Assembly: GCF_024614185.1 (NCBI RefSeq)
Contig: NZ_JAHTLF010000003.1
Coordinates: 62,001 to 126,000 of the forward strand
DNA: 64,000 bases
Direction: 5' to 3'
DNA from: Nocardioides carbamazepini
Lineage (GTDB): Bacteria; Actinomycetota; Actinomycetes; Propionibacteriales; Nocardioidaceae
The position numbers were made by a program, and so were the translations under genes. The notes below the pieces were generated by a model that was not told where the DNA came from, did not search any database, and saw nothing but the letters and a program-made list of their open reading frames with translations. Below are positions 3,059-64,000 of this stretch, one piece after another (positions within the stretch are counted from its first letter, which is position 1; each line of letters begins with the position of its first letter).

Positions 3059-3874
3059 GTGACCGCGACCACGTCCGATTCTCCGCGCCTGGCCCGAGCC
3101 GCCCGGCGGCCCTTCTCCGGCTCGCTTGGCAAGGTGCTGCTGCCGAGCTCGGTCCTCCTGCTGTCGGTGGCGGTCTGGGAGGCCGTCTCCCGGGCGGGGC
3201 TGGTCAACGAGATCATCGTCCCCGCCCCGACCGCCGTGGCCCAGGAGCTGGTCGGGATGCTCGATGAGAGCTACTTCTGGGAGGCCACGTGGGTGACCAT
3301 GGCCGAGACGCTCGCCGGATTCGCGATCGGCGTGGTGCTGGCCTGGGCGCTCGGGACGGTCCTCGGCATGTTCGAGGGCGCCCGTACGGCGTTCTATCCG
3401 ATCGTGGTCGGCTTCCAGATCACTCCCCGCGTTGCTCTGGCGCCGCTCTTCCTCACCTGGTTCGGCTTCGGGCTCACCTCCAAGGTCGTGATGGCGGCGA
3501 CGATCTGCTTCTTCCCGGTGCTCCTCAACGTGATGGTGGGCATGCAGGGCGTGGACCCGGCGGCGCGCACGCTGATGCGGTCGCTGGGTGCGAGCCGGTG
3601 GGAGGAGTATCGGAAGCTCACCCTGCCCTCGTCCCTTCCGCTGATCTTCGCCGGAATCAAGAACGCCATCACGCTGGCCCTGATCGGGGCGATCGTGGCC
3701 GAGTTCGTCGGTGCGTCCCAGGGCATGGGCGTCTTGATCAAGACGCTCAACTTCCAGCTCAACGTCGCCGCGGGCTTCGCCGTCATCGTCGCGCTCATGG
3801 TGTTCGGGCTGATCCTCTACTGGATCGTCGAGCTCGTGGACGCCAAGGTCGTCCACTGGCGCAACCACGCCTGA
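3059..3874 (+). CDS. ABC transporter permease, SsuC/TauC/NitT type
   Basis: The GTG at 3059 with a GAGG ribosome site just upstream gives 271 residues, the usual size. About six membrane segments are visible, starting with LLPSSVLLLSVAVWEAV. The EAA loop reads RTLMRSLGASRWEEYRKLTLPSSLPLIFAGIKNA, which is the interaction motif for the ATPase. It is the third gene of an ABC import operon with the ATPase and truncated binding protein. The reading frame is open further upstream, but a start inside the ATPase gene would add a non-homologous extension. Substrate is unknown; context suggests a nitrogen compound fed to the pathway downstream. Confidence 0.87.
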   Translation: MTATTSDSPRLARAARRPFSGSLGKVLLPSSVLLLSVAVWEAVSRAGLVNEIIVPAPTAVAQELVGMLDESYFWEATWVTMAETLAGFAIGVVLAWALGTVLGMFEGARTAFYPIVVGFQITPRVALAPLFLTWFGFGLTSKVVMAATICFFPVLLNVMVGMQGVDPAARTLMRSLGASRWEEYRKLTLPSSLPLIFAGIKNAITLALIGAIVAEFVGASQGMGVLIKTLNFQLNVAAGFAVIVALMVFGLILYWIVELVDAKVVHWRNHA

Positions 3875-57994: not shown

Positions 57995-60900
57995 GGCTCC
58001 AGCATCCCTCAGGCCCGGGTGGACGTGATCCGGTAGCGCGCTCGTGGGTGGCCTCGTCGTAGAGGTTCATCCCCGCTGGCGCGGGGCGGACTCGCCGTCG
58101 CCGACCACCTCGAGGTAGACGTGGGGCTCATCCCCGCTGGCGCGGGGCGGACAGCTTCAGGGGCAGTGAGGCGGCAAGGACCACGGGTTCATCCCCGCTG
58201 GCGCGGGGCGGACGCCTTGTTGTTCTCGATGACGAGGGCGCGGGCCGGCTCATCCCCGCTGGCGCGGGGGCGGACCACTGGCTCGACCACCCACGCTCGG
58301 CCGCGACGGTTCATCCCCGCTGGCGCGGGGCGGACACACCGTACCCACCGCGGTCGGAGGCCACGCGGGGCTCATCCCCGCTGGCGCGGGGCGGACAAGC
58401 TCCGCAGCCCGCGAGGGATGCACGGATGGGGCTCATCCCCGCTGGCGCGAGGCGGACAAGGAGTACCCGTACGAGATCTCCGTCGGCCAGGGCTCATCCC
58501 TGCTGGCGCGGGGTGGACTCTCGGAGTCTGGCGGGGGCGACAACGGCGTTGCGCTCATCCCGCTGGCGCGGGGCGGACACGCGCGACACCCCCCGAGCCT
58601 GTCTGGCGTGGGGCTCATCCCCGCTGGCGCGGGGCGGACCTCAACGCTAGGAGCCCGCCGGCCCCGGCCACGGGCTCATCCCCGCTGGCGCGGGGCGAAC
58701 TCGCCCGCCGTGGTGATCCCGATGAGCAGCGCGGGCTCATCCCGCTGGCGCGGGGCGGACTCCGCAAGCTGCTCGAAGCGAAGGACTGCTTCGGGCTCAT
58801 CCTCGCTGGCGCGGGGCGGACCCCGAGGACACAGTCGTCGTTCCGGCGATCCCAGGGCTCATCCCCGCTGGCGCGGGGCGGACGACGGCCAGATCGTGGT
58901 GCCGGACCTGTCGGTGGGCTCATCCCCGCTGGCGCGGGGCGGACAAGGTGTAGCGGCGCGTCAGGACGCCGGGCTGGGGCTCATCCCCGCTGGCGCGGGG
59001 CGGACCGAGGAGGGGGCGAGGGAGTCGACGCCGTTGGGGCTCATCCCCGCTGGCGCGGGGCGGACATCCTCGGCCTGCACCCCGCCACCGAGCCGGAGGG
59101 CTCATCCCCGCTGGCGCGGGGCGGACCTGACCGAGCGACCCGGCCCGGACGACCACCCGGGCTCATCCCCGCTGGCGCGGGGCGGACTCGAACGCGCGCT
59201 CGGTGGAGTCGCCGGCGCGGGGCTCATCCCCGCTGGCGCGGGGCGGACCTGGTGCGAGTTGGCGACGTGCTCGCGGGTCTGGGCTCATCCCCGCTGGCGC
59301 GGGGCGGACCGCTTGACGACCGAGGTGTCGATCATCTCCAGGGGCTCATCCCCGCTGGCGCGGGGCGGACCCGATCATGACTGCTGACGAGGGCCGTACC
59401 CAGGGCTCATCCCCGCTGGCGCGGGGCGGACCTGTGCCGGCGCTGCCGAAGTTCCGTGCCGCTGCCCTCATCCCCGCTGGCGCGGGGCGGACATCTCGGA
59501 CAGGTCGTGCGTCCCGGTCGGCGCGGGCTCATCCCCGCTGGCGCGGGGCGGACGGGCTCTCAGGCGAGGCGGAGCCCCTGTGCCGGGGCTCATCCCCGCT
59601 GGCGCGGGGCGGACATGTCGAAGTCGATCGAACCGACGCCAGCGCTGGGCTCATCCCCGCTGGCGCGGGGCGGACATGACCGACTCCAACGCCGAGTTCG
59701 TCGACGAGGGCTCATCCCCGCTGGCGCGGGGCGGACAAGCTCGAGCTGGCCCGCGCTGACTGCCGGTCCGGCTCATCCCCGCTGGCGCGGGGCGGACCGT
59801 GGTGTCCTGTCGTGGACCCGAGTGGGCGACGGCTCATCCCCGCTGGCGCGGGGCGGACCCACGGCGGTCGACGGCGTCGCCCTCGACGATGGGCTCATCC
59901 CCGCTGGCGCGGGGCGGACCGTCCGAGCTGGGTGAGCGCCTGCGGTGCGTTGGGCTCATCCCCGCTGGCGCGGGGCGGACGCGCACCGGACCAGCGACGG
60001 CGTGGTCGGGACCGGCTCATCCCCGCTGGCGCGGGGCGGACCGTCGCTCCGGCTCGACGCGGCTGATGTGGTAGGGCTCATCCCCGCTGGCGCGGGGCGG
60101 ACGGCAGCAGTCCGGCGACCAGGGTCACGGCCCGGGCTCATCCCCGCTGGCGCGGGGCGGACGGCTTCTGGTAGACGCCATTGAGGAACGACCAGGGCTC
60201 ATCCCCGCTGGCGTGGGGCGGACGCCGTCGCGAGCGCATCGTCGGCCCGCTTCCCGGGCTCATCCCCGCTGGCGCGGGGCGGACGCTCGGTCAGCGACTA
60301 CTCGCTGGATCACGCGGGGCTCATCCCCGCTGGCGCGGGGCGGACTTCGGGGAGCCGTAGTCGAGGAGGGGCCAACCGTGGCTCATCCCCGCTGGCGCGG
60401 GGCGGACCCCAACGCACACGACCAGTGGCCGCTCAAGGCAGGCTCATCCCCGCTGGCGCGGGGCGGACGACGCACGACCAGGAGACGAGTTCTACGACCT
60501 GGGCTCATCCCCGCTGGCGCGGGGCGGACGCTCGACCGGCGGGGGGTCTGATGTTCTGGGCGGGCTCATCCCCGCTGGCGCGGGGCGGACCGGTCGGCCT
60601 GGGAGATGCACAGCGGGTCGATGGGCTCATCCCCGCTGGCGCGGGGCGGACTCGTAGGCCCGGGCCTCCTCGACCGGCGACAGGGGCTCATCCCCGCTGG
60701 CGCGGGGCGGACCAGCACGACGTCGGGGAAGTGGAGCTCGCACAGGGCTCATCCCCGCTGGCGCGGGGCGGACATCCGTCGCGACGCCGGCCTCACGCAG
60801 GCGCAGGGCTCATCCCCGCTGGCGCGGGGCGGACGTGCGGCTGATCTTCCCCGACGTGATCCACGGGGGCTCATCCCCGCTGGCGCGGGGCGGACCGTGC

Positions 60901-61383
60901 ACGGCGGCCGACCCGCGGCTGCTCCGGGGGCTCATCCCCGCTGGCGCGGGGCGGACGTTCGATGCCGGGCAGCGTGCAGCGTGACCGCGGGCTCATCCCC
61001 GCTGGCGCGGGGCGGACACCGTGGATGTCGTCGGTACGGCGGTCGATCTGGGCTCATCCCCGCTGGCGCGGGGCGGACGTGGTCGCGTTGATCGCGTGGG
61101 AGACGAACCCGGGCTCATCCCCGCTGGCGCGGGGCGGACGTCCCGGTCCAGCCGCGGTCGTAGGCCGTGAAGGGCTCATCCCCGCTGGCGCGGGGCGGAC
61201 GAATTCGCCACCGACGGCGACAAGTTGCTCAGGGGCTCATCCCCGCTGGCGCGGGGCGGACCTGCGGAAGATGCGGCGCCGCTGGTTCGGCCCGGGCTCA
61301 TCCCCGCTGGCGCGGGGCGGACTTGCTGGCGGGGTTGATGGATTTGTTTGTGACGGGCTCATCCCCGCTGGCGCGGGGCGGAC

Positions 61384-61477
61384 GGCCGGTGTTCATCGGT
61401 GACGACTGTGGCGCGGGGCTCATCCCCGCTGGCGCGGGGCGGACGGCCGGTGTTCATCGGTGACGACTGTGGCGCGG
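61384..61477. repeat. Adjacent duplicated spacer pair 1
   Basis: The spacers at 61384-61416 and 61445-61477 are identical (both begin GGCCGGTGTTCATCGG), separated by one intact repeat. This indicates duplication of one repeat-spacer unit by replication slippage or recombination. Confidence 0.95.
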
Positions 61478-61566
61478 GGCTCATCCCCGCTGGCGCGGGG
61501 CGGACTCCGGCGCGGGCTTCGGGTTCGGCTCGGACGCCGGCTCATCCCCGCTGGCGCGGGGCGGAC

Positions 61567-61660
61567 ACCCTTCCGCGGATCCTGTGCCAGACCCAGCAGG
61601 GCTCATCCCCGCTGGCGCGGGGCGGACACCCTTCCGCGGATCCTGTGCCAGACCCAGCAG
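61567..61660. repeat. Adjacent duplicated spacer pair 2
   Basis: The spacers at 61567-61599 and 61628-61660 are identical (both begin ACCCTTCCGCGGATCC). One unrelated spacer and no other feature separates this pair from pair 1, so this part of the array duplicated twice. Confidence 0.95.
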
Positions 61661-62298
61661 GGCTCATCCCCGCTGGCGCGGGGCGGACCACAAGGGCTGC
61701 CACTGCCTCGCCTCGCCCGTGGGCTCATCCCCGCTGGCGCGGGGCGGACTACCGCCTCGCGACGCTCGACTACTCGCCGTTGGGCTCATCCCTGCTGGCG
61801 CGGGGCGGACGGCTGCTGCCGGCCGCGAAGCACGCGGGACAGGGGCTCATCCCCGCTGGCCCGGGGCGGACCGGGAACGGTCGGGGGAGCCACGGGCGGA
61901 ACGGGGCTCATCCCCGCTGGCGCGGGGCGGACATCCCCCGGATATGCCTCTCGATGTCGACGGGGGGCTCATCCCCGCTGGCGCGGGGCGGACCGACAGT
62001 GGGCGGCCGATGCCGCCTGGCGACCGGGCTCATCCCCGCTGGCGCGGGGCGGACGCAGTGCGGGGCGGGACGGTGATCGTGTAGCGGGGCTCATCCCGGC
62101 TGGCGCGGGGCGGACCCCGCGAACGCCACCTCACTCCGGCTCTTCCCGGGCTCATCCCCGCTGGCGCGGGGCGGACGCCGGCCGATAGAAGGCAGTTCGG
62201 CGAGTCGGGGGCTCATCCCCGCTGGCGCGGGGCGGACGCGGAGCAGTCGCTCGGCGCGACCCAGACCGTGGGCTCATCCCCGCTGGCGCGGGGCGGAC

Positions 62299-62392
62299 TG
62301 CGATCGCGGCCTAGCTGACGTCGTGGAGAGGGGCTCATCCCCGCTGGCGCGGGGCGGACTGCGATCGCGGCCTAGCTGACGTCGTGGAGAGG
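62299..62392. repeat. Adjacent duplicated spacer pair 3
   Basis: The spacers at 62299-62331 and 62360-62392 are identical (both begin TGCGATCGCGGCCTAG). The pair lies one spacer to the left of the fused-repeat scar. Confidence 0.95.
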
Positions 62393-62420
62393 GGCTCATC
62401 CCCGCTGGCGCGGGGCGGAC

Positions 62421-62453
62421 TCGCAGTCGCCGACCACCTCGAGGTAGACGTGG
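62421..62453. repeat. Spacer shared with the oldest spacer of the array
   Basis: This 33-base spacer matches the first spacer of the array (58092-58124) at 32 of 33 positions; both contain CGCCGACCACCTCGAGGTAG. The two lie 4.3 kb apart. The one difference (TCGCAG versus TCGCCG) makes a long-standing duplication more likely than a sequencing repeat. Confidence 0.95.
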
Positions 62454-62505
62454 GGCCCATCCCCGCTGGCGCCGGCCGGCTCATCCCCGCTGGTGCGGGG
62501 CGGCC
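62454..62505. repeat. Fused repeats without a spacer (array scar)
   Basis: A degenerate repeat (GGCCCATCC...) is cut after 24 bases and joined directly to another degenerate repeat (62478-62505, with GGTGCGG and a final GGCC). No spacer lies between them. All repeats for many units on both sides are near-perfect, so this is a local rearrangement. Confidence 0.9.
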
Positions 62506-64000
62506 ACACCGCGCGGCGAACCCGCGTCGTGGGCTACGGGCTCATCCCCGCTGGCGCGGGGCGGACACCCGGATCAACACGCACACCGTGGCCGGTGCGG
62601 GCTCATCCCCGCTGGCGCGGGGCGGACCTCAAGAAGATGGTCCGCGACTGGTGGGGTCCGGGCTCATCCCCGCTGGCGCGGGGCGGACAGGCTTCGGCGA
62701 GGAGCGCGACTGCATCTGGTGGGCTCATCCCCGCTGGCGCGGGGCGGACCGCACGGCGAAGTGGCAGCACGCCTTCGACTCGGGCTCATCCCCGCTGGCG
62801 CGGGGCGGACGGGCAGGCGATGTCGCAGGCCCAGCAGGCGCTGGGCTCATCCCCGCTGGCGCGGGGCGGACACGCACGCGGCCCACACGTCGAGGGCCTT
62901 GCGGGGCTCATCCCCGCTGGCGCGGGGCGGACGTCACCGCGGCGACCGGCAAGGAACAGGCCAAGGGCTCATCCCCGCTGGCGCGGGGCGGACGGCGACA
63001 TCGGGGACGGTCAGCGGGAGGTCGAGGGCTCATCCCCGCTGGCGCGGGGCGGACGCACTTCGACGTCACCATCGACGAGCTGATGACGGCTCATCCCCGC
63101 TGGCGCGGGGCGGACCTCACCGACCCCGTCGAGCCGAACGGCGGCTCGGGCTCATCCCCGCTGGCGCGGGGCGGACGAACATCAGATCACCCCTTCGAGG
63201 ACCGATGCGGGCTCATCCCCGCTGGCGCGGGGCGGACAACATGTAGATGTTCGGATGCTTGATCGCGTAGGGCTCATCCCCGCTGGCGCGGGGCGGACGC
63301 CGCCGTAGATCGACGGGCGTGCGGCGCCGAGGGCTCATCCCCGCTGGCGCGGGGCGGACGCCATCGGTCAGCAGGGACCGCACGATCTGGAGGGCTCATC
63401 CCCGCTGGCGCGGGGCGGACGACCCCAGGCTCGCGCGCGCGGACGTGAAGCAGGGCTCATCCCCGCTGGCGCGGGGCGGACGACCGGAAGTTCTACGACT
63501 TCCCCAACGAGGGGGGCTCATCCCCGCTGGCGCGGGGCGGACTACACCCCGCCGACCGTGATGATCGACGAGGCGGGCTCATCCCCGCTGGCGCGGGGCG
63601 GACAACACCCCCGGTGGTGTCGAGGCGTCCGGAGCGGGCTCATCCCCGCTGGCGCGGGGCGGACGGCGGCGCAGCTCCTCGCGGATGTCGTCGAGCTCGT
63701 CGAGCAGGGCTCATCCCCGCTGGCGCGGGGCGGACGAGGCGCCCGAGGATGAGGACTCGTGCGGCGGGGGCTCATCCCCGCTGGCGCGGGGCGGACACGC
63801 ACCGGTCGAGGTGCCCGAGGGGATGACGGGGCTCATCCCCGCTGGCGCGGGGCGGACTGACGCCACATCTTCGACCCGGACTCTGACCGCGGCTCATCCC
63901 CGCTGGCGCGGGGCGGACCTCGGGGCGGTACTCGGCGCAGGGGACGGTGTCGGGCTCATCCCCGCTGGCGCGGGGCGGACACTTGCTGACCTGCGAAGAT

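What the first reader, a model, noticed from the sequence alone, without database searches (positions are those of the whole stretch)
58064..64000. Exceptionally long CRISPR array with the old end in view
98 repeats in under 6 kb, still open at the right edge, is far above the usual few dozen. Decay is concentrated in the first 13 repeats, and the complementary strand carries the E. coli type I-E hairpin core, so transcription is most likely leftward. The oldest spacers are therefore at 58092 onward and the newest lie beyond the window. This is a long ordered record of past invaders for one strain.
Basis: partly seen in the sequence, partly recalled or inferred. Interest (0 to 1): 0.7.

Follow-up and report, generated by a model that had tools for sequence, protein, structure and literature searches.

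The report
Complete 98-repeat type I-E CRISPR array
This is the memory bank of an ordinary bacterial type I-E immune system: long, but not exceptional among its relatives, and notable mainly because its oldest record matches a conjugation gene on a mobile element that now lives in the same cell.

Summary
The array is real: 98 repeats, 97 intervals, 58064-63980. It is not open on the right: the last repeat ends 20 bp before the window edge, followed by a 44-bp leader and a complete type I-E cas operon on the minus strand, reading toward the array. "Exceptionally long" fails: sister species Nocardioides albidus has about 195 repeats, and 98 ranks sixth of 66 arrays compared. Thirteen distinct protospacers were found, mostly in phage records or beside phage-type genes, one in a MobF relaxase gene. 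Nine of 13 have AA on the PAM side, eight AAC, against 1.4% background; AAC is a catalogued I-E PAM. Two points are less routine. Spacers 1 (oldest) and 72 are near-copies of one MobF sequence, the second beside decayed repeats, so the array may not be one clean timeline. And the same genome carries a conjugative element with that site: PAM intact, one mismatch to spacer 1, at a crRNA position reported as unpaired in E. coli. Why it is tolerated is unknown: anti-CRISPR, silent system or recent arrival.

The parts
58064..63980 (-). type I-E CRISPR array, 98 repeats, 97 intervals; crRNA sense is the minus strand
   Evidence: orientation from the cas operon, leader and PAM side
58064..58821 (-). 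leader-distal (old) end: repeats 1-13, of which 10 are imperfect (substitutions, 1-bp insertion or deletion)
   Evidence: Fisher test
58092..58124 (-). spacer 1, the oldest; matches the MobF relaxase gene of conjugative elements
62421..62453 (-). spacer 72, near-copy of spacer 1 (1 difference in 33), same MobF target
62454..62505 (-). two degenerate repeats (73, cut to 24 nt with no spacer after it; 74, two substitutions)
61384..61477 (-). spacers 55 and 56, exact tandem duplication
61567..61660 (-). spacers 58 and 59, exact tandem duplication
62299..62392 (-). spacers 70 and 71, exact tandem duplication
63665..63707 (-). aberrant 43-nt spacer
63919..63952 (-). newest (leader-proximal) spacer, number 97
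63981..64000 (-). leader, array-proximal 20 bp; it continues 24 bp beyond the window to the cas2 stop. Junction motif GCAGGTCAGCAAGT. cas2e, cas1e, cas6e, cas5e, cas7e, cse2, cse1 (cas8e) and cas3 follow outside the window at L005 6526-15545, minus strand

Best explanation
A complete type I-E CRISPR-Cas locus of a Nocardioides species. Cas1e-Cas2e insert about 33-bp fragments of phage and conjugative-element DNA at the right (leader) end, choosing sites after 5'-AA(C). The array is transcribed leftward, Cas6e would cut the transcript, and Cascade with Cas3 would destroy DNA carrying the matching site. Gene content, leader, orientation, PAM and targets are shown by sequence; transcription, crRNA processing and interference are inferred from the type I-E family. 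One target, a MobF relaxase site, now sits on a resident conjugative element (contig C3) with intact PAM and one mismatch to spacer 1, so immunity against that element is at present ineffective, blocked, silent or has not yet acted.
For: Eight cas genes in one minus-strand operon pass NCBIfam cut-offs and lie directly upstream of the array's right end. The 14-base leader junction is identical in N. albidus and N. acrostichi and has 1-2 changes in 6 of the 11 other loci compared (3-6 changes in the other 5); the best match in 500 bp left of the array has 6 mismatches. Best protospacers for 13 distinct targets (at most 4 mismatches over the 32-nt spacer): AA upstream in 9, AAC in 8; background AA 1.4%, binomial p about 1e-14; five shuffles of all spacers, and the reversed spacers, gave no hit in the same loci. 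Targets by PHROGs or Pfam include tape measure, terminase large subunit, tail fibre, helicase and ParB-like genes and MobF relaxase. Three N. albidus spacers hit the same Nocardioides prophage-like region as my spacers 36, 69 and 75, each with AAC and 2 mismatches. Self site: G000:C3:3077-3109.
Against: No expression or interference data. The self site with intact PAM argues against full activity now, and no spacer other than 1 and 72 matches C3 at 6 or fewer mismatches, so there is no trace of priming. 4 of 13 protospacers lack AA. Spacer 19's best site has AAG although its 29th base is C. None of the 12 spacers with another 29th base gave a protospacer, so the PAM origin of that base is only half tested.
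Confidence: 0.9

Rival explanations
1. The array is a head-to-tail fusion of two related arrays (repeats 74-98 and 1-72) that shared an old terminal MobF spacer, so it is not one continuous timeline.
For: Spacers 1 and 72 differ at 1 of 33 positions and share a G that only 2 of 28 fetched genomic sites have (28 of the 51 places were fetched). Degenerate repeats 73 and 74 lie beside spacer 72, like the decay at the left end. N. albidus seems to have a similar pair near its old end (spacer 185 and a partial copy).
Against: No other spacers are shared between the two blocks. Only 2 repeats are decayed at the internal site against 10 of 13 at the left end. The second copy in N. albidus is only 12 readable bases.
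Confidence: 0.4
2. The MobF spacer was acquired twice independently from related elements at the same PAM.
For: The site is widespread: at least 51 places in 46 of 215 genus genomes, own included, at E <= 0.001, so repeated exposure is plausible.
Against: Both copies share a minority allele (2 of 28 fetched sites), unlikely for independent draws; no fetched site has the T of spacer 72.
Confidence: 0.35
3. The system is silent or inactivated in this strain, and the array is a relic.
For: Self site with intact PAM on contig C3; no spacer gained against C3.
Against: All eight cas genes are open and cover most of their family models (for Cas3 the C-terminal fifth of the full-length model is not matched). 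Leader-proximal repeats 75-98 are all perfect. In the newer part, spacer 81 matches a terminase gene and spacer 79 a site beside a tape measure gene, both with AAC.
Confidence: 0.3

Closest known systems
Type I-E CRISPR-Cas locus of Nocardioides albidus (L038 and L154-L155, NZ_VDMP01000025.1)
   Same: Cas1 97% identical, identical 28-nt repeat, same leader junction, 29th base C in 154 of 157 spacers, targets in the same prophage-like region and the same MobF gene
   Different: about 195 repeats; no 14-mer shared between its 193 readable spacers and mine; no full-length copy of the C3 MobF gene in that genome, only short or weak matches
Escherichia coli type I-E system
   Same: same set of eight cas genes and repeat hairpin core (E. 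coli repeat recalled, not searched)
   Different: PAM mainly AAC here rather than AAG; 29th repeat base mostly C (84 of 96) rather than G (E. coli values recalled and in PMC8482600 and PMC5904413 passages)
Type I-E systems with AAC PAM (Bifidobacterium entry in the catalogue of Vink et al. 2021, PMC8482600; passages read)
   Same: AAC PAM
   Different: that paper links repeat-PAM identity at position -1 to AAG PAMs in I-E; here the C of AAC matches the 29th base

Membership tests
Type I-E CRISPR-Cas | signature effector genes cse1 (cas8e), cse2, cas7e, cas5e, cas6e | tested here: met
   NCBIfam models over cut-off for all five
Type I-E CRISPR-Cas | cas3 helicase-nuclease in the operon | tested here: met
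   cas3_core and cas3_HD over cut-off; the full-length PRK09694 model is below its cut-off
Type I-E CRISPR-Cas | cas1e and cas2e adaptation genes | tested here: met
   TIGR03638 and TIGR01873 over cut-off
Type I-E CRISPR-Cas | 28-29 nt hairpin repeat, 32-33 nt spacers | tested here: met
   28-nt repeat; 88 of 97 intervals 33 nt and 4 of 97 32 nt
Type I-E CRISPR-Cas | leader next to the newest spacer | tested here: met
   44 bp between cas2 stop and first repeat; junction motif conserved
Type I-E CRISPR-Cas | AAN-type PAM 5' of the protospacer | tested here: met
   9 of 13 AAN, 8 of 13 AAC
Type I-E CRISPR-Cas | Cas6-processed crRNAs and DNA interference | not testable with these tools
   needs RNA sequencing and a plasmid assay
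Exceptionally long array | length far above relatives | tested here: not met
   sixth of 66 arrays, truncated ones included; N. albidus about 195; median 24
Anti-CRISPR-carrying element (contig C3) | known acr or aca gene | tested here: inconclusive
   10 small C3 proteins against NCBIfam: no Acr family; two HTH-type regulators, all matches below curated cut-offs. Not all C3 genes were scanned

The most novel reading that the evidence does not exclude
The resident conjugative element C3 survives beside two matching spacers because it blocks type I-E immunity, for example with an unrecognised anti-CRISPR of actinobacterial conjugative elements; and Nocardioides lineages keep an old anchor spacer against the MobF relaxase gene, around which arrays have been duplicated or fused.
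Probability: 0.2. Interest if true: 0.6.

Novelty: new member of a known kind. Interest (0 to 1): 0.35.

Why it matters
The locus gives a complete, oriented I-E system with a supported AAC PAM and phage targets in a genus where 6 of 215 genomes searched carry cas1e while at least 46 of 215 carry the MobF site. The self-matching, PAM-intact site makes contig C3 a concrete place to look for an anti-CRISPR or to test CRISPR silencing in Nocardioides. The repeated spacer is a caution against reading a long array as one clean chronology.

Tried and rejected
Rejected: 'array continues to the right'. Rejected: 'exceptionally long'. A general rule that the oldest spacers of actinobacterial I-E arrays target MobF: three arrays suggested it (mine; N. 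albidus spacer 185 of about 194; a Micrococcales MAG, L039, spacer 53 of 53), though my spacer 72 does not lie at the old end. A search of the last two spacers of 37 other arrays (74 spacers) against plasmids gave 32 records at E <= 1, none annotated as relaxase. That test was insensitive: it contained the L039 spacer and missed it, it did not contain N. albidus spacer 185, and the leader-end control set printed was never searched. So I do not claim the rule.

Phage and plasmid searches with the whole array were dominated by repeat matches to other arrays. I opened four rows (H67, H84, H119, H180); 118 records and 13 were not listed there. Many genus hits of the 43-nt spacer (query 3304-3347) look to me like a conserved coding motif; I did not examine them or count them as protospacers. 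Weaker matches for which I took no region were not examined either. The G075 match was fetched (L141) but gave no ungapped match at 6 or fewer mismatches. Spacer 51 has one 6-mismatch place, not counted. Ten small C3 proteins gave no known anti-CRISPR family.

Papers. Searches for Nocardioides I-E PAM, long arrays, AAC PAM with Streptomyces, self-targeting with anti-CRISPR in Actinobacteria, PAM-repeat links, trailer-end with conjugative plasmid (no paper held all terms), flipped-out positions, MobF with CRISPR spacer (70, one clinical Klebsiella paper, not opened) and array recombination: listings only. Passages were read of PMC8482600, PMC5904413, PMC6858448 and PMC7145573. I make no claim that the self-target or the MobF spacer is absent from print beyond these searches.
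Full report
What is there. The array runs from 58064 to 63980 with 98 repeats and 97 intervals. A script scan listed 101 places; three were chance matches inside spacers and are dropped. Repeats and spacers are numbered left to right as. 81 repeats are exact and all exact copies in the 6.3 Mb genome lie in this array, on one strand. 96 intervals hold a spacer (93 distinct); one interval has zero length. The genome has one cas1 frame. It belongs to the genus of Nocardioides albidus: G004 is listed as same genus, and its contig has the same length, 540,660, as the named N. albidus contig.

Right end. Contig C23 continues 253 kb past the window. The last repeat is 63953-63980; 44 bp later comes the stop of cas2e, then cas1e, cas6e, cas5e, cas7e, cse2, cse1 and cas3, all on the minus strand, reading toward the array. 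All eight pass NCBIfam cut-offs (for Cas3 the two domain models do, the full-length PRK09694 model does not). The leader ends in GCAGGTCAGCAAGT before the first repeat. Of 13 other loci compared, N. albidus and N. acrostichi have the same 14 bases, six have 1-2 changes (among them Austwickia, Nocardia and Pseudonocardia) and five have 3-6. Left of the array the best match in 500 bp has 6 mismatches. So the right end is new and the left end old. Decay agrees: 10 of repeats 1-13 are imperfect, 7 of the other 85 (p = 3e-7).

Length. The comparison set is the loci fetched by Cas1 similarity plus the cas1e-bearing Nocardioides genomes. In 66 arrays of three or more repeats, 98 ranks sixth; the median is 24, truncated arrays included. 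N. albidus has about 195 (187 plus 8 across a stretch with N). A published database reports 587 spacers as the longest array and at most 50 spacers in total in the majority of bacterial genomes (PMC7145573, passages). The array is long for bacteria but not exceptional among its relatives.

Targets and PAM. The array was searched against phages and plasmids and 92 of 96 spacers against 215 genus genomes. Among the fetched places, 14 spacers (13 distinct targets, since 1 and 72 share one) match with at most 4 mismatches over 32 nt. Upstream of the protospacer in crRNA sense, 9 of 13 have AA and 8 have AAC; background AA is 1.4% (p about 1e-14). Five shuffles of all spacers, and the reversed spacers, gave no match in the same loci. 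Exceptions: spacers 12 (CAC), 43 (CTG), 87 (AGC), 91 (AGC); spacer 19 has AAG. Spacers 12 and 91 hit phage records (91 outside an annotated gene). By PHROGs or Pfam the others hit a tape measure gene (19, 69), a tail fibre gene (36), terminase large subunit (81), a helicase (17) and a ParB-like gene (43). The frames hit by 75 and 79 gave no family but lie beside tail or tape measure genes (75 in L136, 79 in L133). The frames hit by 37 and 87 gave no family. N. albidus spacers 127, 148 and 149 hit the same region, L136, as my 36, 69 and 75, each with AAC and 2 mismatches. The 29th repeat base is C in 84 of 96 spacers here and in 154 of 157 in N. albidus. This fits a PAM-derived C, as the G of AAG is in E. 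coli; it is inference, because no spacer with another 29th base gave a protospacer. AAC is listed for Bifidobacterium I-E in PMC8482600 (passages), so the PAM itself is not new.

The repeated MobF spacer. Spacers 1 and 72 differ at one base. They match the MobF relaxase gene (TrwC relaxase, AAA, DNAG_N and Toprim domains) at residues 957-967, just after a weak UvrD-like match at 916-955 that is below its cut-off. The site occurs at 51 places in 46 of 215 genus genomes, own included, at E <= 0.001 (counted by eye; a lower bound, since few candidates per genome were scored), and on plasmid pCHL of Nocardioides sp. QY071. Both spacers carry a G found at 2 of 28 fetched sites, which favours common descent of the two copies. 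Repeats 73 and 74 beside spacer 72 are degenerate. Array fusion, another duplication or re-acquisition all remain possible; I put fusion slightly ahead.

Self-target. Contig C3 (72,527 bp, 68% GC against 72% in the window) holds this relaxase gene, a TraG/TraD-type coupling protein and a stretch 88% identical to type IV secretion genes of pCHL. Its site, C3:3077-3109, has AAC and one mismatch to spacer 1 at position 18 of the 32-nt spacer, and two to spacer 72 (positions 18 and 28). Every sixth crRNA position is reported flipped out and unpaired in E. coli Cascade (PMC5904413, passages), so a mismatch at position 18 should be tolerated if this Cascade behaves alike. No other spacer matches C3 at 6 or fewer mismatches, so there is no trace of priming. 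N. albidus has a spacer for another part of this gene (2 mismatches, AAT flank), and its genome has only short or weak matches to the gene. Why C3 is tolerated is open: silent cas genes, an anti-CRISPR (no known family among 10 small C3 proteins) or recent entry. That C3 belongs to the same cell rests on the assembly (contamination estimate 0.56%).

Verdict. An ordinary, complete type I-E locus.

Noticed in passing
L097 2500-2640 (Corynebacterium phage SamW, MH727560.1): Three type I-E repeat-like hairpins about 62 bp apart between phage genes 23 and 24, the middle one nearly identical to this array's repeat: a possible phage-borne mini-array or attachment site. Phages Troy, StAB, Stiles, Lederberg, Dina and Bran give similar matches at like positions; only SamW was read.
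   Followed up: partly
G000:C3:1-72527 (L130, L144-L147): Conjugative element with MobF relaxase, coupling protein and T4SS-like genes in the same genome, matched by spacers 1 and 72.
   Followed up: partly
N. albidus array, old end (L154): Besides MobF spacer 185, a partial second variant of it is readable next to a stretch of N.
   Followed up: no
N. albidus spacers 16-19 (L038): Two consecutive spacers repeated in the same order with single-base differences, suggesting tandem duplication followed by mutation of spacers.
   Followed up: no
215 Nocardioides genomes: Only 6 of 215 genomes searched carry cas1e, so this system is rare in the genus.
   Followed up: no
L136 (G062:C1:5623000-5639000): Prophage-like region hit by spacers of both this array (36, 69, 75) and N. 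albidus (127, 148, 149), so two species record related phages.
   Followed up: partly
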